Assembly: GCA_013180625.2 (NCBI GenBank)
Contig: SNVD02011027.1
Span: 434,001-498,000 of the forward strand
Source: Boswellia sacra
Lineage: Eukaryota > Streptophyta > Magnoliopsida > Sapindales > Burseraceae
Direction: 5' to 3'
Length of the DNA stretch: 64,000 nt
Shown here: piece after piece, positions 1,801 to 49,182 of the stretch
How the letters are laid out: every line of letters begins with the position of its first letter
Position numbering within the stretch: position 1 is the stretch's first letter
Made by a program: the position numbers and the translations under genes
Notes under the pieces: generated by a model
What the model was told of the DNA's origin: nothing
Seen by the model: the letters and a program-made list of their open reading frames with translations, nothing else
The model's database searches: none

Positions 1801-1822
1801 TTGATTAAGTTCGTCCCATTTG

Positions 1823-2706: not shown

Positions 2707-2746
2707 GGTTGCTCAATTTTTTTAAATCTTAATCGATTTTTGAGCT

Positions 2747-6077: not shown

Positions 6078-6091
6078 AAAAAGGGGGAGAT
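6078..6091 (+). other. Polypurine tract of copia element
   Basis: AAAAAGGGGGAGA directly precedes the 3' LTR, the expected primer for plus-strand DNA synthesis. It fixes the LTR start at 6092. Confidence 0.9.
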
Positions 6092-9805: not shown

Positions 9806-11175
9806 AAAAAGTCAACAAAATACTCTTACTTTATCCTTCCTTTTTCCTTCTTAACATCTTTGTTTTCATCTTCATTCTATCGGTCTGTTCATCATTTCTC
9901 TCACCTTTTCTATTCCTGTAAAATGAGGAACCCATTCAAGTGCTTAGGTGCCTGTTCTAAGGGTAAATACGCCCATTCAAAGCCTAGTGTACCCATATGA
10001 GGGCTAGTATGTCCATTCAAGAGCTAATATGCCCATCTAAGGGCACATGTGCCCATTCAAGGGCTAGAAAGCATCCTTATGATGCTATAATAAAATAGTC
10101 CTTAGTATACCTACTTTTTAGGATTTCTAACACTTTTCAATGCACCTACTCCTTAGGGTTTCTAATACTCTTCAGTGCGCCTACTTCACAGGGTTTTCAA
10201 CACTCTTTAGTGCACCTTTTTAAGGCTTGTGCCTATTCTAAGAACTTAAAATACTCCTAAGTACACCTACTTCTTAGGACTTGTGCCTATTCTAAGAGCT
10301 TAAAACACTTTTAAGTGTACCTATTTCTTAGGGTTTTCTTCTAGTACATGCCCACTGGGAAAATGTTCTCTCGTGCACTACTTCGCTACCTTTAGACCTT
10401 TCCATTCTTCGTGCCTTTGTCTAAGTATCCTTCGTACTTTTTATGACTTCTTCTGAATTTGCATTCTTTAGGTTTCACGACCGTCTTCTAAGTTCTACAA
10501 GATTCATTAATTTGCTCCAAATTTTGTATTCAATGGGTTCCATGCTCAAGTACTATTGCTTCTGTTCCTGATTCCTTCTAATCCACTAGGGAAATTCATC
10601 ATGTTTCTAGCATTTCTCGTTCCACTTCTTTTGCACTCGTCATCCTTTTCACTAGGGAGTTCTTATTATGTTGTTAATTCTTGAACTCACTGGGCATTTT
10701 TCAAATATTCTTTCAAGTTCCTCCAAAATGTCAAAGATCTTAATGATTTCAAATTTATTCAAATTTTACCTCATATTGTGTGTTTTCAACAACTTTGCTT
10801 TCTAGTCTCTTGAGAAATTCTTTCCTCATGTGTACCGTCCGAGGATTCCATTCGACCGATGCTATCCTTTCTGTATGAGTTGCTAAACTGTTGACATGGC
10901 TGGGTGCTCACTATCGAGATGCTTCAAAGATCCTATTGAGGTTTTAAAGTTGATGTAAAAGTTTTTCTTTCCATTTTCCTCTTTTCTTTTTCTCTTTCTT
11001 CTTTCTCTCTGCTTTCTCTCTCTTCTTTCCTTTCTTTTTCTTCTTTCTCTTTCTTTTCTTTCCTGTTTTCTTTTTTTTTTCTTTCTTCTTTTCCTTCTTT
11101 CCCTTTTGCCCCTCACTGTCAACAACGGGTTGATGGTTTGACCACAGTTTGGTAGTCAAGGACTTGTTGTTTTTG
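9806..11175 (-). other. Tat-A 3' untranslated region with minisatellites and a polypyrimidine tract
   Basis: No gene is visible. On the minus strand the order is a purine-rich tract (10960-11110), then unique sequence. Next come two short-period repeats: about 35-bp 'gtgcac...agtgttaga-aaccctaagaagtag' units (10090-10345) and about 20-bp 'gggcacat--gcccttgaa' units (9925-10080). The same order occurs on the plus strand at 48560-49080 and 62160-63360. This shows it is the region between the pol/antisense genes and the 3' LTR of the Tat family. The Lys/Arg-rich ORFs here are low-complexity artefacts. Confidence 0.65.
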
Positions 11176-12013
11176 ACAATTGTAACTTTCTTTGAAGACG
11201 TGCAACACTTAAATCGAAGTTAAGGGCTTTAACAGCCCAATAAGCTTTATGTGCTAGCTCAATAGGTAAATGACAAGCTTTCCTATAGACAAGACGATAT
11301 GGAGACATTCCTATGATAGTTTTGTAAGTAGTGCGGCATGCCCATAATGCATCAGAAAGGTGTAAAGAGCAGTCTTTGCGATTCGGGTTAACAGTCTTTC
11401 CTAGAACTTGCTTGACCTCCCTATTTGTGAGCTCAGCTTGCCCATTTGTTTGTGGATGTATGCGGTGGAAATCTTATGAAGAACACCATACCTGTGCATT
11501 GAAGCTTCAATAGAACGGTTATAGAAATGTGTCCCTTGGTCATTGATGATGACTGGCGTACCATACCTAGACAACACGTTTTCTTTTAAGAACTTACCAC
11601 GGTTGTGTTATCATTAGTACGACAAGCCATAACCTCCATTCATTTGGACACATAATCAACAACTAGAAGAATGTAAAGATAATCAAAAGATATAGGAAAA
11701 GGTCCCATAAAGTCAATACCCCAACAGTCAAATATCTCAATAACAAGAATAGGGTCAGGGGGATCATATGATGCTAAGGTAAAGCACCCAACTTTTGGCA
11801 TCTTTCACACGAACGACAAAAATTGTTAGTAGCAATGCACAAAGTGGGCCAGTAGAGTCCACACTGTAAAATTTTTGTAGCAGTCTTTTTTATCTAGAAA
11901 TGACCACTACAAGCAGCGTTATGGCAAAAGTTTAAGACACTAGCAATTTCACTATCAGGAATGTAACGTCGCATAATTTGGTCAGCGCAATGTTTGCAAT
12001 GATAAGGATTATC
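11176..12013 (-). pseudogene. pol: Athila-1 integrase, decayed and truncated
   Basis: Broken frames on the minus strand keep [21 protein letters not shown] core sequence near 11630-11700, a DNTTVV...GTPVIINDQGTHFYN-like block at 11520-11620 and [35 protein letters not shown] sequence near 11220-11320. These match the less broken integrase of Athila-3 (42200-43110). Frameshifts and stops interrupt it several times. It ends at the Tat-A junction near 11176, losing the last 100 or so residues. Confidence 0.82.
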
Positions 12014-12397
12014 CTAATAAAAATTATGCACCTCAACCAAGAACTTAGGCTTATCTTGTACACTCCGGTTAGATGGAACTTCTCCGCAAACCAAGTAATT
12101 TACAATATGTGCATACCAAGGTACTTGACTTATAGTGAAAAGATGTTTATCAGGGAAATCATCTTGAATGGGTTGGACATTAGTGGAATCATTGAACTCA
12201 AGATGAGATAAATGATCTGCTAGAATGTTTTCGACACTCTTCTTGTCCTTAATGGTTAGATTAAATTCATACAAAAGAAGAATCCACCTAATTAGAAGAG
12301 CCTTCGCATCCTTCTTAGAAAAAAGGTACTTAAGAGCTGCATGGTCAGTAAACGTAGTAATAGGTGAACCAATTAAATAAGAAAGAAATTTGTCCAA
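12014..12397 (-). pseudogene. pol: Athila-1 RNase H domain
   Basis: The 127-codon frame carries SPITTFTDHAALKYLFSKKD and LLYEFNLTIKDKK...NILADHLSHLEF. These are the C-terminal hallmarks of gypsy RNase H running into the linker before integrase. It continues the RT frames located just upstream on this strand. The HKVT-type Asp in TDHAAL is kept. Broken from RT by stops at 12398-12560. Confidence 0.85.
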
Positions 12398-12571
12398 GGC
12401 AAAAACAACAGCTAATATTTCCTTTCAGTAGTAGAATAATTCATTTGAGTATCATTCAAGGTCCTAGTGAACAACAAAGGGTTTGCCCTCCCTTTGTTGA
12501 CCAAGGACTCCTCCTACAACATAGTTACTAGCTTCACATATAATCTCAAATGGAAGGTTCCAATCAGGTGA

Positions 12572-13490
12572 CTACATAATAGGAGCAGTGGTGAGTTTGG
12601 CAATTAGTGTCTGAAATGCTTTCTCACAAGCTTGAATCCATACAAATTCAGCATCTTTTAACAAAAGGTTACATAATGGTCCAGATATAGAAGAAAAATG
12701 TTGTGTAAACCTCTTATAAAGACCAGCTTGCCTTAGAAAATATCGGACATGTTTTATCTTTTTAGTTGTAGGTAATTTAGAGATCAACTCAATTTTAGCC
12801 TTGTCAACCTCCATTCCTCTTTCTGAAACGATGTGTCCCAAAAGAATCCTAGAAGACACCACGAAATGATGTTTTTCCCAATTAAGCACAAGTCCTTTTT
12901 CTTCACACTTACTCAAAACAGATTTTAAGTTAAGTAGACATGAATCAAAAGAGTTACAAAAAAAGTCAAATCATTCATAAAAACCTCCATGCATTTTTCA
13001 ACCATGTCCGAGAAAATACTAAGCATGCAACATTGAAAAGTAGTTGGTGCATTACATAATTCAAATGTCATCCTACGAAAAGCATAAGTAGCAAAAGGGC
13101 ATGTGAAGGTAGTCTTATCCTGATCCTCTATAGCTATTTCTATCTGGTAATATCCTAAGTACCCATTAAGAAAGCAATAAAAAGGATGACTAGCTACACG
13201 TTCCAAGATTTGGTCAATAGAAGGCAATGGAAAGTAGTATTTTCGGGTGGCTGTGCTTAATTTCCTATAATCAATGCACATCCACTATCCAGTTACTATC
13301 CTAGTTGGAACAGACAGTCCTTCATCATTTCAAACCACAGTTACTCCAGATTTCTTAGGCACTACCTATGTTGGACTTATCCATTGACTATTAGATATTG
13401 GATAGATTATACCTGCATCTCATAGTTTTAAGACTTGTTTCTTTTACCACTTTCTTCATTGTTGAACTATGTCTTCTTTGGGGGTCTATA
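12572..13490 (-). pseudogene. pol: Athila-1 reverse transcriptase core, disrupted
   Basis: Two frames carry the RT: 13281-12925 with MCIDYRKLSTATRKYYFPLP, then FYCFLNGYLGYYQIEIA and FATYAFRRMTFELCNAPTTFQ, and 12916-12572 with LGHIVSERGMEVDKAKIELI. The YMDD-equivalent site reads FMNDL instead of the F/Y-M-D-D usual in this family. The first Asp of the pair is therefore Asn and activity is not expected. The solo copia LTR (13492-15297) splits this domain from its N-terminal part. Confidence 0.88.
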
Positions 13491-13491
13491 T
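13487..13491. repeat. Target site duplication of solo copia LTR
   Basis: TATAT at 13487-13491 is repeated exactly at 15298-15302, flanking the TG...CA ends of the solo LTR. The RT coding trace continues across the site when the LTR is removed. Confidence 0.9.
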
Positions 13492-15297
13492 TGTTGACCC
13501 AGGTATGACAACCCAAGAGGGGGGGTGAATTGGGTTTTATTTATCAAAACGAATTTATAAAACTTTTCTTGAAAGATAAAAATTATTTCACTCTTTCTTT
13601 AAGAATAAAGGTGAAGAAGATGAAATTGGAATTTATCAAAAATGCAATTAAAAGAATAATAATAATTAACAATCACAAGTGCAAGTAAATGTAAAGAGGA
13701 AAGGGATAGAGAGAGTGCAAACTCAATTTACGTGGTTCGGCAAACCTTGCCTACGTCCACGGGCTCCTAGCTCCACGAGCTAAGCTTTCCACTAAGTTGT
13801 AGAAAATCTTTACAACTTGCTTGATGAACAACCTCACCAAGACTTTTTCTTTCAACTCTTGATAACACCACACCAAGAGTTCTTCTTGATGAACAACCTC
13901 ACCAAGGCAACTTCCTTCAACCCTTGATAAAACCACACCAAGAGTTCTTCTTGATGAACAACCTCACCAAGGCAACTTCCTTCAACCCTTGATAACACCA
14001 CACCAAGAGTTCTTATTGATGAACAACCTCACCAAGGCAACTTCCTTCAACTCTTGCTAACACACAACAAGAGTTCTCTCAAGGATAACTATTATCCTTT
14101 ACAATAATATCTCCCTCTCCCCACAATACAAGAACAAAGATAATTTTTACAACAAAAGTATAACTCTCTTCAAAGAGTAGATAAATAATATAAAAGCTCT
14201 CTAGACTTGATATTTCTCTTGCTTTTTGCTTGATAAAATGCTTCTCTTTCACTACTTGAATGCATGGGAGAATGGCTCCTTTTATAGGCAAATGAGATGA
14301 ACTTAATCAAGTGAAGACACCAACTCCAAATTTTCTGCCCACCATAAAAACCGTAATTTTGTCTACCATTTTTGTCAATGTTCCGTTTGAAATTTGAAAA
14401 TCTGTAAAACATAAAAGATCTGCACATTTGAATAAGCTTTCCAACGCATTAAGAACCAAGTCATTTGGATATCTGTAGCTCAAGATATGGCCAAAACACC
14501 ATTCGGTGCTCAAGTGACTGGATTTTTCTTCCATGTGTCTGTCCACTGACTTGAATGATAATTCTGTCAGCCGTCCATTTGAAATTTGAATTTCTTCAAA
14601 ACATAAAAGATCTTCATATTTGAATAAGCTTTCCAAAACATTAAGAATCAAAGCAATTGGATATCTCTATCTTAAGATATGGCTAAACCACCATTCGGTG
14701 CTTATGTGAGTTGATTTTTCTTCTCTGTGTCAGTCCACCGAATTGCATGTCAATTATGTCGGTCTTCTGTTTGAAATTTGAATTTTTTCAAAACATATGA
14801 AATGTTCCTCATTAAGTCATCTTTCCAATGCTGCAAGAATCAAGTCATTTTGATTTTTCTAGCTCAAGATATGTCCAAAAGAGTATTCGGTGCTCATGTC
14901 AGCTGCTTCCATTTGTCTTTCAACTTGCATGATGATTTGGACGATCTTACACTTAAAATTTGAATTTCTTTAAAAAATATGAAATGTTATAAATTGAGTA
15001 AGCTTTCCAAAGGCTCAAGAATCATGTCATTTGGATATTTGTAAAGATATATATGACCAATTGATTGAACATTGCTCATGTGTCACATTCCTTGAGTCAA
15101 TCCTTGTTCTTAAACTTTGGTGCCTTTAAAATGTAGTCTTCTCCTTAGCTTCAACACTTCATTTTAATAAGCCTCTTCTTGATTTTAAAATTATTTCAAT
15201 GATCTTACTCTTGCACATAAATAAACATGTTAGTAAATCTCAATTAATCAATGTGTATTGTTATCATCAAAATTATCATGTAGCCTTAGGGCTAACA
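13492..15297 (-). repeat. Solo LTR of the copia family
   Basis: This is a reverse-complement copy of the 813-2690 LTR, 1,806 bp long. It starts 'tgttgacccaggtatgacaa' and ends 'gccttagggctaaca', and has no internal region. It has the inverted TATA box near 14277-14289, four leader repeats (about 13850-14085) and the U3 repeats. Flanking 5-bp duplications show a full element inserted here and then lost its interior by LTR-LTR recombination. Confidence 0.93.
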
Positions 15298-16254
15298 TAT
15301 ATGAGGTTGGGTACCTTCCTCCAGATGGATTTCGTGGGAACATATTAATGGATAAATACCTTTAATATCAGTTATAATCCAACCTGGTGCAGACTTATGT
15401 TCTTTTAACAAGTTTATCAATTTTTCATCTTGCTCAACACTAAGTTCTGAAGAAATAATAACAGGAAAGGTATCACTTGCTTCCAAGAAAACGTGCTTCA
15501 AACCTTTGGGTAGTGGGGAAAGTTCAACTTTTTGGTGCCTCTAAGTTAGAGGGTTTTAGCTTCTCTCCTCAACAAGGCATTTCTTCAAAGCGTGGTTGCC
15601 AAAATTGAGTCTTTTATCTTGTGAGTCAAAAACACCAAACAAATCAGTCGTATCATCAGGATAAAATAAATCTACAAAATCAAAATCAAGAAGGTATTCT
15701 AACGAGTCAGAATCCTGTTTTCTATAAGCCTCCTCTGAGATAAGTGTGCCTATCATATATGAATGGTAGCAGTCATCCTTATCTTGTGGTTGCTTTCCAA
15801 TGTGGGAAATATTCACCTCAAGAGTCATATTCTCAAATGATAATTTCATAAGACCGTTCCTGCAATTAATAAAAGCGTTAGCAGTGGCAGGAAAAAGTTT
15901 TCCTAAAATAAGAGGGATTTTGGACTCCATATTGACTGCAGACTTGGTATCCAAAACAAGAAAATCAACAGGGTAATAAAATTTATCAATCTGTAATAGA
16001 ACATCATCTACTATTTCCCATGGTTTCTTGACCGATCGGTCAGCCAATTGTAGAACTACGGATGTGGGTTTGATCTCTCCAAGTCCTAATTGTAAGTAAA
16101 TAGAATTGGACATGAGATTGACACTTGCTCCCAAGTCTAACAATGCTTGACTGAATTCATGTGTCCCGATATGGCAGAAAATTGTAGGACACCCTGGGTC
16201 TTTATACTGGGGTGGCGCTTTTTGTTCAATTACTGTAATTACTTGTTCCATCAA
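15298..16254 (-). pseudogene. pol: Athila-1 protease and N-terminal RT linker
   Basis: The 232-codon frame (16254-15556) holds the aspartic protease: CHIGTHEFSQALLDLGASVNLM, with D-L-G-A as usual in Athila, followed by LQLGLGEIKPTSVVLQLADRS and the IPLILGKLF flap-like block. A second frame (15501-15292) has MKHVFLEASDTFPVIIS...GWIITDIKGI, the spacer leading into RT. It ends at the solo LTR insertion. A frameshift near 15540 separates the two. Confidence 0.88.
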
Positions 16255-17137
16255 GAATGCAGTCCTCTTGACATGGTGCTTTCTTTTGATGGTGCATAGA
16301 TCCTTGATAACTTTGGTGTAAGCCAGAACCTATTTAATTACATGCAACAAGGAAACATTAATCTTAACTTGTTTTAAGTGTTCTAGAATCTCACCTTGAA
16401 TTTTTGAGTTTTTCCCATTAGATCTGAGAGCTTGGGAAAAGGCAACTGGATCAAAAATTTCTTTTCAAGTTCTTCCTAAAAAAATGTCATCCTTTTGTGA
16501 GGGAAAATCTTTGTTTTCCACGGTTGTGTTGATTGGCAATGTAGGCTCATTTAATCTTATCACCCCGAGTAGTGGTGGCATTTGCCTCTTCGAGATTTTG
16601 TATGTCAGAAGTAGAGGCTTGTGCCACATGTTACCCCTTTGGATTAGACTAAGTTTGAGATGGAAACTTACCTTACTCTTGTATGGTCAAAGCACTAGTT
16701 AGATTAGTGATTTGACTTTTGATCTCCTTGTTATCTTCCACCACTTGTACAAGAACTATTTCAAATTTTTGGTTAGTTTTATTTTAGGCCTCCATAAATG
16801 CTTGTAAGATGTCCTCTACGGAATTCCTAACTTATGGGGCATTGTATTGAGGTGCTTGATAAGACTTGGATGGTTGTTGTTCCTGCTCCCATTGGTTGTT
16901 GTTTTGGGGGTTAGATTTCTAACTAAAGTTTGGGTGGTTTCTCCAGCCAAGGTTATAGGTTTCAAAATATGGTGAATAAGACTTTTTGTACATCCCTAGG
17001 GCATTAAATTGTTCCTCATACACCCCTCTCATCTCACTATGAGTTGGGTAATCTTGAGCTAAGTGTTTCACCCCTCCATATGTGGGTGACCTTCCTATCT
17101 TTGGTTTTCAAGGCTTCCAATTCCCTAGTTAAGACTT
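16255..17137 (-). pseudogene. gag: Athila-1 gag C-terminal region, heavily broken
   Basis: Compared with Athila-3 (40110-41040), the frame traces include MSEPQ-like linker, AITTRGGK-like and LEHLKQVKIN-like fragments with many stops. Near 17060-17090 the zinc knuckle is damaged: about 43 bp present in Athila-3 (including its CLVC half, 40160-40175) is absent here. The first two cysteines are therefore gone. The region links gag to protease. Confidence 0.65.
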
Positions 17138-17959
17138 CTAATTGGGTTTCAAGTTTGTCCTATTCCCTAAGATGGTAAATTCCACTAGGTCGTACCTATT
17201 TGTTCTATCTATAGTGCTTGGTCCAGTCCATGTGTGGGTTTTTTCAACTAAGTCTTTGAGGAATTCTATGACTTCCTTAGGGTCTTTTTGAAGGAACTCC
17301 CCATTACACATCATCTCAACAAATTGGCACTCTCTAACTGTGAGTCCCTCATAAAAGTAACTAACCAAGCACCAATTTTCATACCCATGATGAGGACACA
17401 TGTTTAACAACTCTTTAAATCTCTCCCAAGTTTGGTACAAGGTTTCACTATCTTTTTGGGAGAAAGAGGAAATTTGTCTTTTTAGGTCGTTAGTCTTATG
17501 TTGTCGAAAATATTTGTTAAAAAACACTTGGGTCATTTCTACCCAAGTTCCCATGGATCTCAGTTTTAAAGAGTACAACCAACTCTTTGCTTTGTCTTTT
17601 AGAGAGAAAGGGAAAAATTTTAACCCAACAGAATCTATGGCATTGGCCTAACTATGAAAGGCGCCCACGACTTCTTCAAATTCCCTAACATGCACATAAG
17701 GGTTTTCACTATCTAAACCATGGAAAGTTGGTAAAAGATGTATCATCCTCGGGTGAAAGTCCAACTTTAGTGTGTTGGGTGGAAATATGATACATGATGG
17801 TGTGGCTGTCTGGGTAGGATGCGAGTAATCTCTTAGAGTTTTAACAGGGTTGTCCTCATGTTGGCTCATTGTATCAGAATTAGAAGATGAAGATGAACAA
17901 AGAATTGGATTTTCTTTGGTTGCAAAATCTTGTTGTGGTTCTAAATTGATTTTTTTCAT
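17138..17959 (-). pseudogene. gag: Athila-1 gag N-terminal and capsid region
   Basis: Frame 17959-17648 starts MKKINLEPQQDFATKENPIL and ends in NPYVHVREFEEVVGAFHS. A stop replaces a codon, and the next frame (17578-17138) continues with LYSLKLRSMGTWVEMTQVFFNKYF, ETLYQTWERFKELLNMCPHHG and CQFVEMMCNGEFLQKDP. This is the retrotransposon gag domain of Athila/gypsy elements. One frame break near 17600-17640 separates them. The same protein is found at 39280-40110. Confidence 0.88.
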
Positions 17960-18022
17960 AAATCTCCCTCGTTAGTGTCTAAATTGCTTCATACATCCTC
18001 ACAATTTGTCTCTTTTTTTTCT

Positions 18023-18310
18023 TTACACAAGAAAGTTCTCAAATAAAGTTAAAAAGTAATAAGACAAAAAAGTTAGAGAGAAGAAGAGGAAAAAAAAATA
18101 AAACAAATAAGGCGACAAAGCTAACCTTTGACAAGTATATGCAAAATTAAAAAAATTAAAAGAAACATGGCGAAAAGCCGACCTTTGACAATTATATAGA
18201 ATAAAAAAATAAAAGAAACAAGGAGGCAAAGCTGACATTTGACAAGTATATGCAAAATAATATAAGAAAATAAAAGAAATAAGGTGGCAAAGCTGACCTT
18301 TCAAATATAA
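18023..18310 (-). repeat. Leader minisatellite of Athila-1 (~65-75 bp x4)
   Basis: On the minus strand the units read 'tgtcaaaggtcggctttgcc' then a T-rich filler. Four copies start near 18300, 18240, 18190 and 18130. The matching leader of Athila-3 (38685-39120) has about nine units. It lies between the primer site and gag. The ORFs across it are repeat artefacts. Confidence 0.75.
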
Positions 18311-18580
18311 AACAAGAATATTAAAAGACTAATTTAAAAAGTTAGAAGTTAGGAACCAAAAAAAAAAAATAGGTGCGTAAAAATAAAAGTTAGTGCAAGA
18401 ATAATTAAGATAACAAAATATAAAAAAATGAAAAAGGAGGAGAATAATAATTAGAGTTAGGTAAGATTAGGCAAAGTTAAGCAAAGTTAGGCAAAGTTAG
18501 GGGGGAAAAAAACTAAGGGATGAAATTTTACAAGAAAAAGAAATGAAAAATATAAACCATCTTTCGTCTATTTTGCCTCC

Positions 18581-18598
18581 CCGACAATGGCACCAAAT
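18581..18598 (-). other. Primer binding site of Athila-1
   Basis: On the minus strand TGGTGCCATTGTCGGGG follows the LTR after two or three bases. It corresponds to the TGGCGCCATTGCCGGGG site of Athila-3. This TGGCGCCGTTGCCGGGGA-like site is the one known from Athila elements, assigned to tRNA-Asp. Two substitutions mark decay. Confidence 0.82.
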
Positions 18599-18600
18599 TT

Positions 18601-19986
18601 TGTTTACGCCCAAAATATACTGCGGTGATTATAATATAAGTTGAGGTGTCAAATGCACAAGGAGGATTTCGACATAAGAGGTTAGTAAAACCAAAATATC
18701 AAAAAGATAATAAAGACATAAAATTTAACTTTGAAGTGATTTGTTATAAAGAGACTACAATGTATAATAATTGGAACCAATCGATGGTAATTAAGGAGTA
18801 AAACATCGAGAATCACTTATGTTATGAAAATCTAATCCCCACTTTGATTCAACAATTATAACTCAATTGAAAGTTTCACATCCTAAACAATCAATCAAAA
18901 AATATGTATCATAAAGCATAATTGATAAACACATGCATTTGATATGCATAAACTCTTTACAAGCAATATTTACCAGCAATGTTCATCCTTACAAGTTATC
19001 CAAGAGTGACAATATATCTATTGATACTATTACAGTAAAAGATTGACTCATAAAATGAAACTATCAGTAACAATTATAATTCAACACGAATCACATAAAG
19101 AAAGCATGACTAAATTTATATGAAATTGAGAATTACAATTTTTGATTTAAAGACAAATTACAAGATGAGAAAGAGTTTAGCACATAAACAAACATACAAA
19201 CTTTATAGCCTTGAGGAAGAATCAAAGTGGAGAAATAGATAAACTACGCATACAAGTTCATCTCTAGCATTACCAAGAGTTCTAGCCTAACCTGCAATTC
19301 ATTCCCATCATTTCTAAAGAGGAAATACAAGAGAGAATTTTAATATACAATGATATAATAGAATTCAAATGATTTTTCTCTCCCATTCAACTCCTCAAAT
19401 TGTCCTTATACAGGTGATTAAATGGAACTATCTTAATATGAACCAATCTTCCACATTTTCGGCCACCAAACCTTCCACCAACTTACAAGACATTTTGACT
19501 ACCAAAACAATTGAATTAGCTTTGTGGAAAACATAAAAGTTGTAGCTTTTTGTCTCAACACATTTGGACAAGTCTTGTTTGAGATATAGTAAAAAAACTA
19601 AACATGGGTCACGTTGAGCAATAACTATAGTTCAGTTTTGTTGTGTCTCAATTTCGGCCCATAAGATGTTGTATTTGGGCTTTTGATTGTTCAACTTTCT
19701 GTAGATTGAGCCATGTTGCTCTAAGTTCAAGAATCTCTTCATTTTGATTTATAGATTGAGAGTTATGTCCATTTTACTAAACCTGCAAAAAGATTTTCAT
19801 TAATCACAATTTAGGGACAGCACTTTATTTCAAGATTAGGACTAAAAAAAAAGCAAAAGAAATGAAACAAATATAAAAGAGGCATAAGCAAAATAATTAT
19901 GCTAAAATATCATAAAAGTTTTACAATATTCATCCATTAGCATTAATTATTTATGCTTAAGAGTGTATTTTCATGGGTTTATCAAC
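18601..19986 (-). repeat. Athila-1 5' LTR
   Basis: Minus-strand ends are TGATAAACCCATGAAAATAC at 19986 and GGCGTAAACA at 18601, matching three other copies (29515-30929, 37017-38423, 46284-47684). It is followed by the primer site, so it is the 5' LTR. Its outer flank at 19987 is Tat-A gag/protease linker sequence, so Athila-1 was inserted into Tat-A. Confidence 0.9.
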
Positions 19987-21317: not shown

Positions 21318-22622
21318 AGTTTTTTGCGACAAAATTTTTTGCGACGAAATAAAATTCGTCGCAAAAAGCGGCCTTTTGCGACAAAATTATAATTTCGTCA
21401 CAAAAGTTAGCATTTCAAAAGAAAAGATATTTTGCGAGGAATTTTTCGTCGCAAAATAAAACCTTTAGCGATGAATATTCATTTCGTCGCTAAAAACTCT
21501 AGTGACTAATTAGGGAAGCATTTTTTGCGACGATATAAAACCTATTGCGACAAACTTTTCATCGCAAAACGTATTACACGAAGATGGGATTTTGTGACAA
21601 AAATTTTATAGCAACATGAACATTTTTTGCGACAAAATTATATTTCTCGCGAAAAAAAGACCTTTTGCGACAAAAAATTCCCCGCTAAAAGCCATTCTAA
21701 TTTACCATGCATATATGGCAATACTAGACATTTTGCGACGAAAAAATAATTCCTCGCAAAATGTGACCTTTTGCGAGAAAAATTTTCTCGCAAAAAATTG
21801 ATTTTTTGCGGCAAAAAATCTATTTTTTGCGACAAAACATTCCCCGCGAAAAGCCATTTTAATTTACTATGCACACGTGGCAATACTGGACCTTTTGCGA
21901 CAAAAACGTGATTCCTCGCAAAATGTGACTTTTTGCGAGGAATTTTTTGTCGCAAAAGGTCCATTATTTTGCGACAAAGCATTCCTCGCGAAAAGCCATT
22001 TTAATTTACTATGCACACGTGGCAATACTGGACCTTTTGCGACAAAAACGTGATTCCTCGCAAAATGTGACTTTTTCCAAGGAAAATTTTCTCGCAAAAA
22101 ATATGTTTTTTTGCGACAAAAAATTCCTCGCGAAAAGCCATTTTAATTTACTATACACACGTGGCAATATTGGACCTTTTGCGAGAAAAACGTGATTCCT
22201 CGCAAAATGTCACTTTTTGCGAGGAATTTTTTGTCGCAAAAGGTCTATTTTTTTGCGACAAAACATTCCTCGCGAGAAGCCATTTTAATTTACTATGCAC
22301 ACGTGGCAATACTGGACCTTTTGCGACAAAAACGTGATTCCTCGCAAAATGTCACTTTTAGCGAGGAATTTGTTGTCGCAAAAGGTCTATTTTTTTGCGA
22401 CAAAACATTCCTCGCGAAAAGCCATTTTAATTTACTATGCACACGTGGCAATACTGGACCTTTTGCGACAAAAACGGGATTCCTCGCAAAATGTCACTTT
22501 TTGCGGGGAAAATTTTCTCGCAAAATATTTCTTTTTGCGAGGAAAATTTTCTCGAAAAAAATATACCTTTTGCGACAAAAAATAGACCTTTTGCGACAAA
22601 AAATTCCTCGCAAAAAGTTATT
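21318..22622. repeat. Left subterminal GCGAC-repeat array of the CACTA element
   Basis: Dozens of copies of the core TTTTGCGA(C/G) and its complement TCGCAAAA alternate, many paired as palindromes with AAATT or TTTTT between. From 21691 the array is organised into longer tandem units (separate entry). Such arrays are the cis-acting sites of CACTA transposases in known systems; here that is an inference. Confidence 0.85.
21691..22562 (+). repeat. Six tandem units, mostly 142 bp, inside the CACTA left end
   Basis: The anchor GCCATTTTAATTTACTATGC recurs at 21853, 21995, 22137, 22279 and 22421 (spacing exactly 142 in each case), with a diverged first copy at 21691 (162 bp before the next). Each complete unit holds CACACGTGGCAATACTGG, then alternating GCGAC/GCGAG palindromes. 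The regular spacing shows recent local amplification relative to the rest of the element. Confidence 0.9.
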
Positions 22623-29514: not shown

Positions 29515-30929
29515 TGATTACGTGCAAAATATACTGCGGTTATTATAGTATAAGTTGAGGTGTCAAATCCACAAGGAGGCCTACGACAAAAGAGGCTAGT
29601 AAAAAAAAATATTAAAAAGATAATAAAGACATAAAATTTAACTTTGAAGTGATTTGTTATAAAGAGACTACAATGTATAATAATTGGAAATAATCGATAG
29701 TAATTAAGAGGTAAGGCATCGAGAATCACTTATATGTTTTGTAAATCTAATCCCCACTTCAATTCAACAATTATAAGTCAATTGAAAGTTTCACATCCCA
29801 AACAATCAATCGAAAAATATGTATAGTATAGCATAATTGATAAACATATGTATTTGACGTGCATAAACTCTTTATAAGCAATATTTACCAATGACGTTCA
29901 TCCTTACAAGTTATCCAAGAGTGACAATATATTAATTGACAATTTGCAGTAAAAGACTAACTCATAAAATGGAACTACCAGTTTAACAATTAAAATTCAA
30001 CTCGAAACGCATAAAGAAGGCATGATTGAATTTTTATGAAATTAAGAATTATAATTTCTGGATTAAAGAGAAATCATAATATGAGAAAGAGTTTAACATA
30101 TAAACAAACATACAAACTTTATAGCCATTGAGGAAAAATCAAAGTGGAGAAATAGATAAACTACACATACATGTTCATCTATAGCCTTACCAAGAGTTCT
30201 AGCCTAACTTACAATTCATTCCCTTCATTTCTAAAGAGAAAATTCAAGACAAAATTGTAATATACAATGATATAATGGAATTCAAATGATTTTTCTCCTC
30301 ATTTATTCAACTCCTTAAGTTGTCCTTATATAGGTGATTAAATGGAACTATTTAGTATGAACCAATCTTCCACATTTTCGGCCACCAAACCTTCCACCAA
30401 CTTGCAGCACATTTTTTACTACCAAAACGATTGAATTAGGCTTTGTGGAAAATATGAAAGTTGTAGATTTTGGTCTCATCTTTCCATGGCCACTAGATTC
30501 ATCAATTTGGACGAGTCTTCTTTGAGATATGGTCAAAATACTAAACATGGGTCGGGATGAGCAACAACTACAATTAAGTTTTGTTGCGTCTTAATTTCGG
30601 CCCATCAAATGTTAGATTTGGGCTTTTGATTGTTTTTCAACTTTGTGTAAGGTTAAGTCATGTTGCTCTAGGTTGAAGAATCTCTTCATTTTGATTTACA
30701 GATTGAGAGTTATGTCCATTTTATTAAACTTGCAAAATAATTTCCATTAATCACAATTTAGAGACAACACTTTATTTCAAGATAACGACTAAAAAAAAGC
30801 AAAAGAAATGGAACAAATGTAAAAGAGGCATAAGCAAAATAATTATGTCAAAATATCATAAAAGTTTTACAATATTGACCAATTAGCAATAATTATTTAT
30901 GCTTAAGGTGTATTTTCATGTGTTTATCA
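29515..30929 (-). repeat. Athila-2 3' LTR
   Basis: 1,415 bp, minus strand, beginning TGATAAACACATGAAAATAC at 30929 and ending ATTTTGCACGTAATCA at 29515. Preceded on the same strand by a GGCTGGGGATTG purine-rich tract at 30930-30945, which serves as the polypurine tract. The TATA box CCTATATAAGG is at 30324-30334. Confidence 0.88.
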
Positions 30930-32285: not shown

Positions 32286-32929
32286 TTATAAACAAAGCGT
32301 CATATCCAATTTGCACTTATTGCTCATTCCCACTGACCAGCCAATTTGAGATACTACAGGGTCAGGTTCATAAACAAAAGCTTGTAATTTATCAATTAGG
32401 TCATCAGCAATTGAGGTAGAAATAAGGATCTGTTGTGCTGATTGTGAGAATAAACATTGTTCCATAACTTGATTAACAAAACACAATGAACAGTCAAAGA
32501 AATTATTGACATTCAACAAACCTATGGGTTTCTAGTGGACATTGAGTTGGGCCCAAGAGACAACTTGAAAGATTTCTTCCATTGTTCCAAAACCTCCTAG
32601 TAAAGCAATAAAGGCATATGCATTTTGAATCATACAAGCTATGCGTTCATGCATGGATGAGACCTGTAATTCCTCCCCAACTATTCTCCCAGTGATGTTA
32701 ACTAAAGCTTTAGGGATAATGCCTAAAACTTGACTTCCTCCTATGTATGTAGTTGTTGACACACACCCCATTAACCCTTGGTTACCTTCCCCATAAATTA
32801 AATGAAGTTTTCTCTTAGCTAGAACCTTACCAGATTATAAGTTGGTTCTACAAAAGCTATGCTTTTACCAGGTTTAGATCCACAAAATACACATACTTTT
32901 CGGAATTGACGAGTTGAGGTCCCCTCCAT
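32286..32929 (-). pseudogene. LOG-like cytokinin phosphoribohydrolase captured by Athila-2
   Basis: The frame starts MEGTSTRQFRKVCVFCGSKP at 32929 and ends at a TAA at 32286, about 215 codons, the usual length of plant LOG proteins. Matching features: VCVFCGS at the N-terminus, LGIIPKALVNI, SMHERIACM with the conserved Arg, the GGFGTMEEIFQVVSWAQLNVH block, and a C-terminal DDLIDKLQAFVYEPDP. LOG enzymes release active cytokinin bases from riboside monophosphates in the cytosol using a PGGxGTxxE motif; here Pro is Leu (LGGFGTMEE). Two lesions are seen: a one-base loss near 32836 and a TAG at 32532-32534. There is no intron. The same frame lies at 44277-44922 in Athila-3. It is probably inactive here. 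Confidence 0.85.
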
Positions 32930-33129: not shown

Positions 33130-33830
33130 GTGATTATGGCTCACATCTTTCTCTGGTTTTACGTCTAGTAACAGCTGAAACACCTTCTATGAGTTTGGGA
33201 TATGCTTCCCATCTAATTTTCGCATAAATTGGTAAAACAAGGCCGTTTTGAGTCAGATTCATGAGACTATAGCGTTCCCCTTCTTCTTGAAATTGCGTCC
33301 ATAATCTTAAAATCTCTCGATGCACAAGTTCACAAGGATGCGTCTCAAGAGTCAACAAGATATTATCTAAAGACTCCTTACTCAGTCCATCCTTAATGAA
33401 CTGAATCTTATCTTCTCGATTTACAAACACAAGTCCTAAAGAGCAACATCGCTTGTTACAGGTCCATCGTGCACATTTGTGATAAACTTGTAATTTATTT
33501 GCTCTTCACTTTTTTGCATAAGAGCTTTTACCCAAATCAGGGATAAAGGAAAAAAGGCTTTTGAACATTCATTAGATAATCAGACTTTGGCTTCAATTAA
33601 CCATCATAGATCAAAAGGTAAACCCATGAGCATTAGCAATTTTAACCTCTCAATTGTAAATTTTGAATAATGCATTTGGAGGAAGAAAAGGAAAATGTTT
33701 ACAAAGGTTTGAAAGAGAAAAGTTGAATGCAAGATTTTTGTTTGGGTTATAGCTTTTAAGGAACTAAAAAACCAACTTAAATAGTCACGGATTACCATGT
33801 CTGCCACTTAACCAGGAAATAAAATAAAAC
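33130..33830 (-). pseudogene. Unrecognised extra ORF of Athila-2 (basic stretch plus Cys cluster)
   Basis: Frames 33807-33604 and 33430-33134 with broken sequence between them encode parts of one protein found better preserved at 43477-44080. Visible parts are a Leu-rich N-terminal segment (FTIERLKLLMLMGLPFDL), a broken middle with HKCARWTCNKRC (near 33450-33470), and a C-terminal part IQFIKDGLSKESLDNILLTL...THPCELVHREILRLWTQF. I do not recognise the protein with confidence. The layout (short hydrophobic segment, basic run, C-x2-C-x4-C-x3-C cluster) faintly resembles the small Cys-rich nucleic-acid-binding proteins of some plant RNA viruses. This is only a hypothesis. A TATTTAAG box precedes it. 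Confidence 0.55.
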
Positions 33831-37016: not shown

Positions 37017-38423
37017 TGATAAAAGCATGAAAATACACTTTTAAGCATAAATAATTAATGCTAGTTGGTCAATATTGTAAAACTTTTATGATATTTTAGC
37101 ATAATTATTTTGCTTATGCCTTTTTTATATTTGTTTCATTTCTTTTGCATTTGTTTAGTCTTTATCTTGAAATAAAGTGTTGTCCCTAAATTGTGATTAA
37201 TGGAAATCATTTTGCAAGTTTAATAAAATGGATATAACTCTCAATCTATAAATCAAAATGAAGAGATTCTTGAACCTAGAGCAACATGACACAATCCTAC
37301 ACAAAGTTGAAGAACAATCAAAGCCCAAATCCAACATTTGATGGGCCGAAATTGAGACATAACAAAACTGATTTGTAGTTATTGCTCAGCCAAACCCATG
37401 TTCAATAGTTTAACTATATCTCAGAGAAGGCTTATCTAAATTGCATGAATATGGTGGCCATGAAAAGAGGAGACAAAAATCTATAACTTCCATATTTTCC
37501 ACAAAGCATAATTCAATTGTTTTGGTAGTAAAAAATGTGCTGCAAGTTGGTGGAAGGTTTGGTGGTCGAAAATGTGAAAGATTAGTTCATACTAAATAGT
37601 TCCATTTAATCACCTATATTAGGACAACTTGAGGAGTTGAATAAAAGAGGAGAAAAATCATTTGTTTATCATTGTATATTACAATTCTCTCTTGTATTTT
37701 CTTTTTAGAAATGATGGGAATGAATTGTAAGTTAGGCTAAAACTCTTGGTAAGGCTAGAGATGAACAAGCATGTATAGTTTATCTATTTCTCTACTTTGA
37801 TTCTTCCTCAAGGGCTATAAAGTTTGTATGTTTGTTTATGTGTTATACTCTTTCTCATATTGTGATTTCACTTTAATCCATAAATTATAATTCTCAATTT
37901 CATATAAATTCAGTCATTCTTTCTTTATGTGATTTGTGTTGAATTATAATTGTTACTGGTAGTTTAGTTTTATGAGTTAATCTTTTGCTGCAATATTATC
38001 AATTGATATATTGTCGCTTTTGGATAACTTGTAAGGATGAACATTGTTGGTAAATATTGCTTATAAAGAGTTTATGCATATCAAATACATGTGTTTATCA
38101 ATTACGATTTACTATACATATTTTCCAATTGATGGTTTGGGATGTGAATCTTTCAATTGGGTTATAATTGTTGAATCAAAGTGGGGATTAGATTTACAAA
38201 ATATATAAGTGATTCTCGATGCCTTACCTCTTAATTACCATGGATTGTTTCCATTTATTATACATTATAATCTCTTTATAACAAACACTTCAAAGTTAAA
38301 TTTTACATATTTATTGTCCTTTTAGTATTTTTGTTTTACTAACCTCTTTTGTTGAAAGTCTCCCTATGGATTTGACACCTCAACTTATACTATAATAGTC
38401 GCGATATATTTTGGGCGTAAAAA
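37017..38423 (+). repeat. Athila-3 5' LTR
   Basis: Starts TGATAAAAGCATGAAAATAC and ends TTGGGCGTAAAAA (the usual ...AAACA end has one change). It is 1,407 bp and matches 46284-47684. The TATA site has decayed to CCTATATTAGG near 37611. Confidence 0.9.
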
Positions 38424-38425
38424 AA

Positions 38426-38446
38426 TTTGGCGCCATTGCCGGGGGG
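38426..38446 (+). other. Primer binding site of Athila-3
   Basis: TTTGGCGCCATTGCCGGGG begins two bases after the LTR. This is the Athila-type site, known to be complementary to tRNA-Asp. It identifies the upstream LTR as the 5' one and supports the lineage call. Confidence 0.88.
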
Positions 38447-42060: not shown

Positions 42061-43111
42061 GCCAAATTATGCAACGTTGCATTCTTGATAATGAAATTGC
42101 TAGTGTCTTAAACTTTTGCATAGCACTGCTTGTGGTGGTCATTTCTCAATAAAAAAGACTGCCACAAAAATTTTATAGTGTGGACTCTACTGGCCTACTT
42201 TGTTCAAAGATACTAACAATTTTTGTCGTTCGTGTGAAAAATGTGAAAAGCTGGGTGCTTTATCTCGCCATTATATGATGCCTATTAACTCTATTCTTGT
42301 TATTAAGATATTTGACTGTTGGGATGTTTACTTTATGGGAACCTTTCCTGCATCTTTTTGTTATCTTTACATTCTTCTAGCTGTTGATTATGTATCCAAA
42401 TGGGTGGAGGCTGTGGCTTGTCGTACTAATGATAACACAACCATGGTAAAGTTATTAAAAGAAAATATGTTGTCTAGGTATGGTATGCCACATGTCATCA
42501 TCAGTGACCAATGGACACATTTCTGTAACTGTTCTTTTGAAGCTTTGATGCGCAGGTTTGGTGTTCTTGGTAAGATTTCCACCGCATAACCATGTATAGA
42601 CAAATGGGCAAGCTGAGCTCGCAAATAGGAAAGTGAAGCAGATTTTAGAAAAGACTGTTAACCCAAACCACAAAGACTGGTCTTTACACCTTTCTGATAC
42701 ATTATGGGCATACCGCACTGCTTAAAAAACTATCCTGGAATGTTTCCATATCGCCTTGTTTATGGCAAAACTTGTCATTTACCTGTTGAGCTAGAACATA
42801 GAGCTTATTGGGCTGTTAAAGCCCTTAACTTTGATTTGACTGTTCTAAGTCTTCAAAGAAAGTTACAATTATCAGAAATAGAAGAATTGCAGAATGATGC
42901 CTATGACAACTCCAAGATCTATAAAGCTAAGATGGAAGCGGCTCATGACAAACAGATCTTGAGGAAGAACTTTGAGCTAAATCATCGGGTTTATCTTTAT
43001 GATTCTCAATTGCATTTACACCCTAGAAAGTTAAGATCTCGATGGACTGGGCTATTTATGGTGAAGCACATTTTTCCAAATGAAGCGGTGGAGATTGAGG
43101 ACCCCACCTAG
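42061..43111 (+). pseudogene. pol: Athila-3 integrase
   Basis: The HHCC part is broken (HCTACGGHFS near 42125; NFCRSCEKCEKLG at 42215). The core frame 42200-42589 has FDCWDVYFMGTFPASF, where the first catalytic Asp position reads Tyr, then VIISDQWTHFCN with the second Asp. Stops follow where the catalytic Glu should be. The frame 42704-43111 gives [20 protein letters not shown] and the C-terminal [20 protein letters not shown] domain. The final residues are lost by a frameshift near 43110. Catalytically dead. Confidence 0.88.
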
Positions 43112-43476: not shown

Positions 43477-44081
43477 ATGGATACCATTCTTTCAAACCTT
43501 TGTAAACATTTTCCTTTTCTTCCTCCAAATGCATTACTCAAAATTTACAAAGCACGGTTTGAGAGGCTAAAATTGCTAGTGCTCATAGGTTTACCTGTTG
43601 ATCTACGATTGTTAATTGAAGCCAAAGTTTGATTATCTGGTGAATGTTTAAAAGCCATTGTTTCCTTGATGCCTGATTTGGGTAAAAGCTCTTATGCAAA
43701 AAAGCAAAGAGCAAATAAATTACAAGCTTGTCACAAATGTGCACGATGGACCTGTAACAAGCAATGTCGCTCTTTAGGATTTGCGTCTGTAAATTGAGAA
43801 GATAATATTCAGTTCAATAAGGATGGATTGAGTAAGGAGTCTCTAGATAATATCTTGTTGACTCTTGAGACGCATCCTTGCAGACTTGCGTATTAAGAGA
43901 TTTTAAGATTATGGACACAAATTCGAGAATGGCAGGAACACTATAGTCTCGGGAATTTGACTCAAAATGACCCTGTTTGTCAATGTATAAAAAAATTAGA
44001 TGGGAAGCATATCCCTAACTCATAGAAGGTATTTCAGCTATTACTGGTCGTAAAATCACAGGAAGATGTGAGCCACAATGA
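43477..44081 (+). pseudogene. Unrecognised extra ORF of Athila-3
   Basis: Starts MDTILSNLCKHFPFLPPNAL at the ATG near 43477 and stays open to a TGA at 43630. It then continues in the same frame with SGECLKAIVSLM, a Lys/Arg/Gln run, ACHKCARWTCNKQC (C-x2-C-x4-C-x3-C) and a Ser-Leu-Gly end, then DGLSKESLDNILLTLETHPC, and decays. Total about 200 codons. No named family is recognised with confidence. The basic run followed by a Cys cluster suggests nucleic-acid binding. A relation to the small Cys-rich nucleic-acid-binding proteins of plant RNA viruses is worth testing. It sits between integrase and the LOG-like frame. Confidence 0.6.
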
Positions 44082-46283: not shown

Positions 46284-47684
46284 TCCTAAATGCATGAAAA
46301 TACACTCTTAAGCATAAATAATTAATGCTAATTGGTCAATATTGTAAAACTTTTATGATATTTTAGCATAATTATTTTGCTTATGCCTTTTTTTATATAT
46401 GTTTCATTTCTTTTGCAATTTTTTAGTCTTTATCTTGAAATAAAGTGTTGTCATTAAATTGTGATTAATGGAAATCAATTTGCAAGTTTAATAAAGTGGA
46501 CATAACACTCAATCTATAAATCAAAATGAAGAGATTCTTGAAACTGGAGCAACATGACTGAATCCTACACAAAATTGAAGAACAATCAAAAGCCCAAATC
46601 CAACATTTGATGGGCCAAATTTGAGACACAACAAAACTGAATTGTAATTGTTGCTCAGCACGACCCATGTTCGGTATTTTGACCATACTTAGAGAACACT
46701 TATCCAAATTGCATGACTCTAGTTGGATTGGAAAGATGAAACAAAAAGATACAACTTTCATGTTTTCCACAAAGCCTAATTCAATCGTTTTGGTAGTAAA
46801 AAATGTGCTGCAAGTTGGTGGAAAGTTTGGTGGCTGAACATGTGGAAGATTGGTCCATACTAAGTAGTTCCATTTAATCACCTATATAAGGTCAACTTGA
46901 AGAGTGGAATAAAAGAGGAGAAAAATCATTTGAATTCCATTATATCATTGTATATTATCAATCTCTCTTGTATTTTCGCTTTAGAAATGATAAGAATGAA
47001 TTGTAAGTTAGGCTAGAACTCTTGTTAAGGCTATAGATGAACATGTATGTGTAGTTTATCTATTTCTCCACTTTGGTTCTTCCTCCAGGGCTATAAAGTT
47101 TGTATGTGTAGAAATCATCTTGTGATTTCTCTTTAATCTAGAAATTATAATTCTTAATTTCATATAAATTCTGTCATGTTTTCTTTATGTGATTCGTGTT
47201 GAATTATAATTGTTACTGGTAGTTTCATTTTATGAGTTAATCTTTTACTGCAATATTGTCAATTGATATATTGTCGCTTTTGGATAACTTGTAAGGATGA
47301 ACATTGTTGATAAATATTGCTTGTAAAGAGTTTATGCATATCAACTACATGTATTTAACAATTATGCTTTACTATACATATTTTCGGATTGATTGTTTGG
47401 GCTGTGAAACTTTCAATTGAGTTATAATTGTTGAATCAAAGTAGGGATTAGATTTACAAAACATATAAGTGATTCTCGATACCTTACCTCTTAATTACCA
47501 TATATTGTTTTCAATTATTATACATTGTAGTCTCTTTATAACGAATCCCTTCAAAGTTAAAATTTACGTCTTTATTATCTTTTTAGTATTCTTGCTTCAC
47601 AAACCTTTTTTGTCGAAAGTCTCCTTGTGGATTCGACACCTCAACTTATACTATAATAACTACGGTATATTTTGGGTGTAAACA
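46284..47684 (+). repeat. Athila-3 3' LTR
   Basis: 1,401 bp, starting TCCTAAATGCATGAAAATAC (the first bases mutated from TGATAAA) and ending TTGGGTGTAAACA. It has a clear TATA box CCTATATAAG at 46881-46890. Followed by ACTAC of the target duplication. Confidence 0.88.
46881..46890 (+). promoter_or_regulatory. TATA box of Athila-3 3' LTR
   Basis: CCTATATAAG is preceded by a CATTTAATCAC block shared by all four Athila LTRs. The 5' LTR of this element has lost the perfect box, so only the 3' copy retains it. Confidence 0.6.
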
Positions 47685-49182
47685 ACTACGAAAGAAATGG
47701 GTTCAATACCTAAATGAATAGAAGTACCATGATATGCAAGTTACTTAGACAAGCAACTCAGTCTCAATGAAATTTAATGATCACTTGAAGCAACACGATA
47801 TGCTAAATGCCTAGATGAAGTTTCTAAGCAATAAAACATGCCAGAGGAAGGATAACCTTATAGATGAGGATTACCATAATAATAAGGGTTACTATAGTCA
47901 AAGATAGTCGAAGAACTCGATTGAGAAGAAATATTTGAGATGGTCAACCATACAAGAAGTGCAAGTACAGTCTAGACGACACTTAGCTCGCAAGACTTGC
48001 AAATTGCCTGGAACAAGTCAAACTTTTTCAAAGGAGCTCACATGGTTTAGATGGGACACAATAGTTCATAAAAAGAATATATTGCCTTGAAAAAGACATC
48101 CATCTTGAAGAAGGAATCTCTCTTGAAAAATATGTTTCTCTTGAAAAAACATCTACCTTGAAGAAGAAATTTCCCTCGAATAAGGCATCCACCTTAAAGA
48201 AGAATCATCCTCCAAGAAAAAGAAGGCATTCACCATTAAGAATGAATCTCCCTCAAAGAAAAGGAAGGCATCCATCTTGAAGAAAGAATCTCCTTTGAAG
48301 AAGGAATTTAAAGGCTACTCTAAAGAAAGGATTTTGAAGAAGAAATCTAATGTTCATCTACCACGAATATGAAATCTAAAGCAGATTAAAGAAGCATGGA
48401 GGATACTCGAAAGAAGGGCATGAAACCCAACAAATGCAAATTCTAAAGAAATAATAGAAAGTACGAAGGATACTTAGTCGAAGGCATGAAGAATGAGAAG
48501 GTCTAAAGACCACAAAGCAGTGCATGAGAGAATATTTTCCCAGTGGGCATGCATTAGAAGGAAACCCTAAGAAATAGGTGCACTTACAAGTGTTTTAAGC
48601 CCGTAGAATAGCCACAAACCCTAAGAAGACTCTCATTAAAGAGTGTTAAAAACCTTAAGAAGTAGATACACTTTAAAGTATTTTAAGCCCTTGGAATAGG
48701 CATAAGCCCCAAGAAGAGGCACACTGAAGAGTGTTAAAGACCCTAAGATGTAGGTGCACTAAATAGTGTTAGAAAACCGAAGAAGTAGGTGCATTAAAAA
48801 GTGTTAGAAACGTGAAGAAGTAGGTGCACTGAGGAATGTTTTATTCTAGCATCACAAGGATGCTTTCTAGCCCTTGAATGGGTACATCTACCCTTAGATA
48901 TGCATATTAGTCCTTATATGGACAAATTTTAGCCTTGGAAGGGGCACATTCACCCTTAGATGGGTACATCCGCCCTTGAATGGACACATCCGACCTTAGA
49001 TGGGCATATTAGCTGTTTAATGGGCACATCTACTTTTAAAATGGGTATCTCAGCACTTAAATGGGTTCACCTTTTTGTAGGAATAGAAGAGGAGAGAGAA
49101 ATGAAGACGAGATTGATGGAATGAAGACGAAGATGTCAAAATGGAAAAAGGAAAGATGAAGCAAGAGTACTTTGTTGATCTT
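47685..49182 (+). other. Tat-C 3' untranslated region
   Basis: No gene. It has a purine-rich repeat of about 36 bp ('cttgaagaagaaatc/tccctc' units, 48080-48330) seen only in this copy. Then come the two minisatellites of the Tat family: 'gtgcact-aagagtgttagaa' units (48570-48840) and 'gggcacatccgcccttagat' units (48870-49070). It leads into the LTR start at 49183, as in Tat-D. Confidence 0.65.

What the first reader, a model, noticed from the sequence alone, without database searches (positions are those of the whole stretch)
32286..32929. Athila retrotransposon family carries a captured LOG-like (cytokinin-activating) gene
Seen: in two independent Athila-like elements (32286-32929 minus; 44277-44922 plus) the same frame of about 215 codons lies between integrase and the 3' LTR. 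It has the landmarks of LOG phosphoribohydrolases: VCVFCGS, LGIIPKAL, SMHER, (P/L)GGFGTMEE, SWAQLNVH. The lesions differ between copies: Athila-2 has a one-base loss, one TAG and P-to-L in the motif, while Athila-3 has PGG intact but R-to-C and frameshifts. The ancestor was therefore probably intact while the element was mobile. Known: LOG makes active cytokinin, and plant LOG genes normally contain several introns; none is visible here. Inference: a retroelement kept a host hormone-activation gene as cargo, which could favour dividing, meristem-like cells in which transposition is inherited.
Basis: partly seen in the sequence, partly recalled or inferred. Interest (0 to 1): 0.88.

Follow-up and report, generated by a model that had tools for sequence, protein, structure and literature searches.

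The report
Jumping gene carrying hormone-enzyme and virus-like genes
A very abundant plant retrotransposon carries an intronless copy of a plant hormone-activating gene next to a gene resembling an RNA-virus silencing suppressor, and both show signs of having been kept intact by selection while the element was moving.

Summary
Two decayed LTR elements carry an intronless LOG frame between integrase and the 3' LTR. In the same 638.6-Mb genome all 150 scored copies (of 10,198 first-look candidates) have an unbroken LOG domain. LOG in Gypsy/Athila-like elements is already in print, so capture itself is not new.

What my searches found no paper on is the rest. Upstream of LOG, in 20 of 20 fetched elements, lies a second gene of about 182 aa that matches Viral_NABP and Carla_C4, the zinc-finger silencing suppressors of carla-, viti- and allexiviruses. 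Both genes also occur together in gene models from Citrus, Acer, Gossypium and Diplodiscus. Between subfamilies dN/dS is about 0.2 for both. Element LOGs form one clade apart from the sampled host LOGs and end in a conserved basic LDLTLRL-type tail absent from three host tails. A derivative without RT-integrase keeps both genes. In Citrus the LOG catalytic motif is degenerate while the tail survives, so cytokinin activation is probably not the whole function. Best reading: a two-gene host-manipulation module; the mechanism is inferred, not shown.

The parts
32286..32929 (-). LOG-like frame of element 2, broken
   Evidence: tblastn with L014 LOG; lesions
33197..33715 (-). NABP/CRP-like frame of element 2, decayed
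   Evidence: tblastn E 2.1e-45 with the A-type protein
29518..30929 (-). 3' LTR of element 2, which is 5'-truncated near 34331
   Evidence: window self-comparison
37017..38421 (+). 5' LTR of element 3
   Evidence: K2P 0.112 to its 3' LTR
38428..38445 (+). Primer-binding site, tRNA-Asp type (tRNA match recalled)
   Evidence: pattern with 2 mismatches
42200..42589 (+). Integrase core fragment of element 3
   Evidence: PF00665 E 5.6e-9
43477..44022 (+). NABP/CRP-like frame of element 3
   Evidence: tblastn E 1.9e-70 with the A-type protein; intact relatives match PF05515 and PF01623
44277..44922 (+). LOG-like frame of element 3, broken
   Evidence: tblastn; lesions
46287..47685 (+). 3' LTR of element 3
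11170..19984 (-). Element 1 of the same family (5' LTR 18600-19984), cut off before the NABP-LOG region

Best explanation
These are dead copies of a large Athila-like Ty3/Gypsy family whose 3' region carries a two-gene cassette: a cysteine-rich nucleic-acid-binding protein homologous to alpha-/betaflexivirid silencing suppressors, followed by an intronless LOG. Shown: presence, linkage, homology, protein-level constraint, one clade of element LOGs among the sequences sampled, and retention of the cassette in a derivative without reverse transcriptase and integrase. Inferred: the cassette acts on the host cell to help the element. The NABP would blunt small-RNA silencing or reprogram transcription, as carlavirus CRPs do. 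LOG would raise active cytokinin locally, and its basic LxLxL tail may recruit a TOPLESS-type co-repressor. Together these would favour expression of the element in dividing cells. I give about 0.9 to the anatomy and constraint, 0.6 to 'the cassette is a host-manipulation module', and 0.4 to cytokinin activation as the selected LOG function in this genome.
For: NABP and LOG regions in 20 of 20 LOG-chosen stretches; LOG next to NABP in 8 of 8 NABP-chosen loci. Pfam matches over cut-off; 32 of 38 aligned NABP relatives match PF05515 and 31 of 38 PF01623. dN/dS between subfamilies A and B: LOG 0.21 (bootstrap 0.13-0.31), NABP 0.18 (0.10-0.29); third-position excess when window copies are compared with intact relatives but not with each other. 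12 of 20 stretches join the gag-protease region directly to the cassette, yet L027 has all three frames open. Tail conserved as strongly as the core. Viral CRPs are silencing suppressors, and one is a transcription factor causing hyperplasia (PMC12172455, passages).
Against: No expression, enzyme or silencing data. Most copies are dead; among the NABP-chosen loci LOG is usually broken or cut. Young L011 has an N-terminally incomplete LOG frame, so LOG is not needed in cis. Six of six Citrus models that span the active site have lost the catalytic motif. Copies were chosen by profile score, which favours conserved ones. NABP and LOG identities did not correlate over 8 pairs (r 0.05).
Confidence: 0.6

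Rival explanations
1. Passenger: LOG and NABP were captured once and ride along neutrally; intact frames reflect recent amplification of a few master copies.
For: Young insertions exist (LTR K2P 0.0012 to 0.018 in L011, L026, L013, L014). Within subfamily A the NABP ratio is higher (0.36) than between subfamilies. A young copy with incomplete LOG moved.
Against: Between subfamilies, synonymous changes exceed 1 per site while dN stays near 0.25 for both genes. The derivative that lost RT-integrase kept both frames. Related pairs occur in several plant families.
Confidence: 0.15
2. The subfamilies captured host LOG genes separately, so the low dN/dS reflects constraint on host genes before capture.
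For: Only six host LOGs were in the tree; an unsampled host clade could be sister to some element LOGs.
Against: 17 element-type LOGs form one clade (97/94) against six host LOGs; they share a tail absent from three host tails and the same upstream partner. The NABP, which in this genome I found only in such loci, shows the same ratio.
Confidence: 0.1
3. The NABP is not viral: a host or retroelement zinc-finger protein that resembles viral CRPs by convergence over a short basic-plus-cysteine motif.
For: The Carla_C4 match covers only 28-35 residues; no PDB relative; model confidence is low, pLDDT 60.7.
Against: PF05515 aligns over about 110 residues at E 1.9e-10, and no other Pfam family matched any of 38 members at 0.01. 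23 of 34 weak BFVD matches are, by name, alpha- or betaflexivirid proteins (none significant; families recalled). The direction of transfer is open.
Confidence: 0.1

Closest known systems
Gypsy/Athila-like elements with a LOG (YgdH) extra ORF: PMC9289625 (section 12 and passages read); Steinbauerova 2011 (not held; recalled: two Athila-like elements similar to LOGL4)
   Same: LTR retrotransposon with a LOG-family domain; Citrus and Populus named there
   Different: In what I read they describe no virus-like partner, selection, LOG tail, non-autonomous derivative or loss of the catalytic motif
Viral cysteine-rich / nucleic-acid-binding proteins of Carla-, Viti-, Allexi- and Mandariviruses (PF01623, PF05515)
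   Same: Basic motif plus zinc-finger-like cysteines; Pfam matches over cut-off
   Different: Carried by an integrated retroelement, with an extra conserved C-terminal part; function not tested
Plant LOG phosphoribohydrolases (AtLOG3, AtLOG8; host genes L037-L040)
   Same: PF03641 fold family, PGGxGTxxE and Arg kept in this genome's element copies
   Different: Intronless, separate clade, new basic LxLxL tail
Orchid Gypsy elements with an AlkB-like demethylase (PMC9289625, abstract and section 12)
   Same: Gypsy element with a captured host-type enzyme
   Different: Different enzyme; single lineage in Phalaenopsis; no viral partner mentioned in the parts read
Insect TRAS retrotransposons with an RNA-virus helicase (PMC5563155, search listing only)
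   Same: RNA-virus-type domain in a retroelement
   Different: Helicase; non-LTR elements; insects

Membership tests
LOG cytokinin phosphoribohydrolase (PF03641) | Profile match over the whole domain | tested here: met
   131 of 131 positions in 150 of 150 scored own-genome copies; window copies by tblastn
LOG cytokinin phosphoribohydrolase (PF03641) | PGGxGTxxE motif and preceding Arg | tested here: met
   14 of 14 open own-genome frames; motif in 101 of 120 listed relatives; lost in 6 of 6 Citrus models that span it
LOG cytokinin phosphoribohydrolase (PF03641) | Phosphoribohydrolase activity | not testable with these tools
   needs an enzyme assay
Viral NABP / cysteine-rich protein (PF05515, PF01623) | Match to the curated models above cut-off | tested here: met
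   41.1 and 35.7 bits against a cut-off of 23; 24 and 25.8 against 20.9
Viral NABP / cysteine-rich protein (PF05515, PF01623) | Same fold as viral members | tested here: inconclusive
   pLDDT 60.7; 34 BFVD matches, none at E 0.001 or better
Viral NABP / cysteine-rich protein (PF05515, PF01623) | Silencing suppression or transcription-factor activity | not testable with these tools
   needs a bench assay
Athila lineage of Ty3/Gypsy | Ty3/Gypsy order and extra ORFs between integrase and 3' LTR | tested here: met
   RT and RNase H in L012 and L024; integrase then NABP-LOG then LTR in the window
Athila lineage of Ty3/Gypsy | tRNA-Asp primer-binding site (recalled as usual for Athila) | tested here: met
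   14 of 20 stretches at 0-1 mismatch; window 2 mismatches
Athila lineage of Ty3/Gypsy | RT phylogeny; ATHILA ORF-1 profile | tested here: inconclusive
   no RT tree made; no ATHILA profile among Pfam matches up to E 10 in the 9 ORFs scanned
EAR-motif proteins | LxLxL or DLNxxP motif (definition recalled) | tested here: met
   97 of 120 relatives with LxLxL in the last 14 aa; P0064 ends DLNLTP
EAR-motif proteins | Co-repressor binding | not testable with these tools
   needs an interaction assay

The most novel reading that the evidence does not exclude
A plant retrotransposon lineage carries a dedicated anti-host module: an RNA-virus-derived silencing suppressor or transcription factor, plus a captured cytokinin enzyme re-tooled with a co-repressor-recruiting tail. 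It keeps cells in a proliferating, silencing-weak state, serves non-autonomous relatives in trans, and in Citrus has been reduced to a non-catalytic LOG adaptor.
Probability: 0.35. Interest if true: 0.92.

Novelty: new variant of a known kind. Interest (0 to 1): 0.74.

Why it matters
Most extra ORFs of plant LTR elements have no known function. Here one family offers a testable one: a virus-type suppressor gene and a hormone gene kept together under constraint in an abundant family. It would show transposons and RNA viruses sharing the same host-control genes. It also suggests that some genes annotated as LOGL in plant genomes are retroelement copies.

Tried and rejected
Chance or artefact: rejected. 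Recent segmental duplication of one fusion: rejected. A viral-contig scan with the NABP confirmed no relative (18 stretches matched a pattern, 0 confirmed). PDB relatives of the NABP: none. NABP and LOG identities over 8 pairs: r 0.05. Four of those pairs were matched only by equal contig length and at least one looks wrongly paired, so I draw little from it, but it does not support co-divergence. A background control for the first-look numbers did not complete, so 10,198 and 6,948 are not copy numbers. A hand-typed count of frame lengths had 151 values for 150 rows and is not used. In one search L017 and L021 gave no true LTR pair (tandem repeats), and L012, L019, L020, L024, L025, L027 and L028 had no pair in the fetched stretch.

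Full report
THE OBSERVATION. The window holds three copies of one LTR-retrotransposon family. Element 3 (+) has LTRs at 37017-38421 and 46287-47685 (88.3% identical, K2P 0.112), a tRNA-Asp-type primer-binding site at 38428 (the tRNA match is recalled), an integrase core at 42200-42589 and a LOG frame at 44277-44922. Element 2 (-) keeps its 3' LTR 29518-30929 and LOG at 32929-32286 and is cut off near 34331. Element 1 (-) has a 5' LTR 18600-19984 and is cut off before the cargo region. Both LOG frames are broken. Differences between the two window copies fall 36/31/21 on codon positions 1/2/3, with no third-position excess, as expected of dead copies. Against the open relative L014 they fall 51/39/68 and 52/41/65, the mark of earlier protein-level constraint.

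IT IS A FAMILY. A PF03641 search of the window's own genome gave 10,198 first-look candidates; 150 were scored, and all 150 have an unbroken domain over 131 of 131 positions. The candidate number is a loose figure, not a copy count; my background control did not complete. The LOG proteins fall into subfamilies A (MEKTP start), B (MEGTSKR start) and the window type.

THE SECOND GENE. Upstream of LOG lies a frame of about 182-184 aa. Pfam calls it Viral_NABP (2.7e-10 and 1.1e-8 in two copies) and Carla_C4, all over the curated cut-offs. Of 38 aligned members 32 match PF05515 and 31 match PF01623, and no other family reaches 0.01. In this genome PF05515 gave 6,948 first-look candidates; 150 were scored, all over cut-off, a few with internal stops. 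The same search rang in 0 of 14 control genomes, but those controls are not plants. A profile search found 975 related protein clusters at E 0.01, of which 120 were listed; Populus, Xanthoceras, Acer and Rhamnella are among the named ones, and adds Citrus, Gossypium, Diplodiscus and Orobanche. These are Sapindales, Malvales, Rosales and Lamiales (and recalled for the other genera). A poor AlphaFold model (pLDDT 60.7) gave 34 BFVD matches, none significant, but 23 of the 34 are by name alpha- or betaflexivirid proteins, mostly called RNA silencing suppressor or nucleic-acid-binding protein. In RNA viruses such proteins are silencing suppressors and pathogenicity determinants, and that of Chrysanthemum virus B acts as a transcription factor causing hyperplasia (PMC12172455, passages). 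The direction of transfer is not shown.

LINKAGE. Both regions are present in 20 of 20 LOG-chosen stretches by blastn with element 3, and LOG sequence follows in 8 of 8 NABP-chosen loci. Among NABP relatives P0121-P0294, 11 gene models contain motifs of both genes: eight from Citrus x changshan-huyou (P0192, P0202, P0203, P0205, P0222-P0225) and one each from Gossypium barbadense (P0197, a single LOG motif), Acer yangbiense (P0213) and Diplodiscus trichospermus (P0221).

SELECTION. NG86 estimates used 14 LOG and 12 NABP frames out of 29 loci considered; the others were broken, cut or incomplete. Between A and B: LOG dS 1.15, dN 0.24, omega 0.21 (0.13-0.31; 24 pairs); NABP dS 1.50, dN 0.27, omega 0.18 (0.10-0.29; 11 pairs). 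Within A: LOG 0.19 and NABP 0.36. The synonymous distances are near saturation, so these ratios are, if anything, too high. The sample was chosen by profile score, which favours conserved copies; the codon-position test on the window copies, which were not chosen so, points the same way for LOG and NABP (window pair 28/26/15; against L027 50/37/82 and 53/34/84).

AUTONOMY. Of the 20 stretches, five A loci (L012, L019, L024, L025, L028) have about 2.6 kb between the protease region and the cassette and match the integrase part of element 3; RT and RNase H were matched in the two scanned, L012 and L024. Twelve (L009, L010, L013, L015-L018, L021-L023, L026, L027) join the gag-protease region directly to the cassette at one shared junction. 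L011 has a further deletion. L014 and L020 are subfamily B; L014 has only about 2.2 kb between its PBS and NABP. L027 has a 688-aa frame in the gag-protease region, with a protease match below the curated cut-off (gag is inferred from position), plus open NABP and LOG frames. LTR distances include 0.0012 (L011), 0.0039 (L026), 0.011 (L013) and 0.018 (L014), so some insertions are recent. L011 has a LOG frame without the N-terminus, so LOG is not needed in cis.

ORIGIN OF LOG. Four LOG genes of the same genome (L037-L040), found with a short AtLOG3-based query, are split into five to seven pieces in the stretches read, while element LOG is one frame. A 25-row tree puts 17 element-type LOGs in one clade (97/94) against six host LOGs (96/93) and two bacterial ones. 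Linkage to an element is shown for only part of the 17 and host sampling is thin, so one capture is favoured, not proven.

THE TAIL. Of 120 listed relatives 97 end with LxLxL in the last 14 residues, typically KKRKLDLTLRL; one ends DLNLTP. Mean column entropy over 102 rows is 0.88 for the tail, 1.73 for the linker before it and 0.91 for the core. In this genome 13 of 14 open frames carry it. Three host tails that could be read (L038-L040) lack it. LxLxL and DLNxxP are recalled as EAR co-repressor motifs; binding is untested. PGGxGTxxE is intact in 101 of the 120 relatives, but in all six Citrus models that span the site (P0192, P0214, P0222-P0225) it reads DLATLEA or DLATLKA, while six of the eight two-gene Citrus models keep the tail and two end short of it. 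The same Glu-to-Ala exchange distinguishes PDB 5zbk from 5zbj; that it is a designed inactive mutant is recalled. Hence cytokinin activation may not be what is kept in Citrus.

PRIOR ART. PMC9289625, section 12 (read), reports the YgdH/LOG domain in Gypsy consensuses of two Citrus species and, unfiltered, Populus, citing Steinbauerova 2011, which is not held (its abstract is recalled). A term search inside PMC7264820 and PMC6317226 found neither LOG nor cytokinin. Searches aimed at the NABP in retroelements or plant genomes found nothing relevant. Over ten paper searches I saw no report of the pair; subscription journals, preprints and supplements lie outside them.

VERDICT. LOG capture is real, appears old and constrained, but is known. 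The constrained virus-like partner, the new tail, its retention in a non-autonomous derivative and the loss of the active site in Citrus make this a new variant of a known kind, and a directly testable one.

Noticed in passing
window 813-7963: A Copia-type element with long direct repeats (813-2695 and 6092-7963) and gag/integrase frames between them; a related repeat copy at 13490-15297 lies inside element 1.
   Followed up: partly
window 21643-22678: Tandem array with a 142-bp period, about six copies.
   Followed up: no
P0053, P0080 (Populus): Proteins named LOGL10 in public annotation carry the element-type tail and group with the element LOGs; some annotated LOGL genes may be retroelement copies.
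   Followed up: partly
P0001 (Xanthoceras): A gene model with two LOG domains in tandem.
   Followed up: no
L011, L019, L036: LOG frames starting with the same odd DISC-type N-terminus, suggesting an amplified sublineage with incomplete LOG.
   Followed up: no
Citrus models P0192, P0214, P0222-P0225: Degenerate LOG active site conserved among copies while the C-terminal tail persists: a possible pseudoenzyme.
   Followed up: partly
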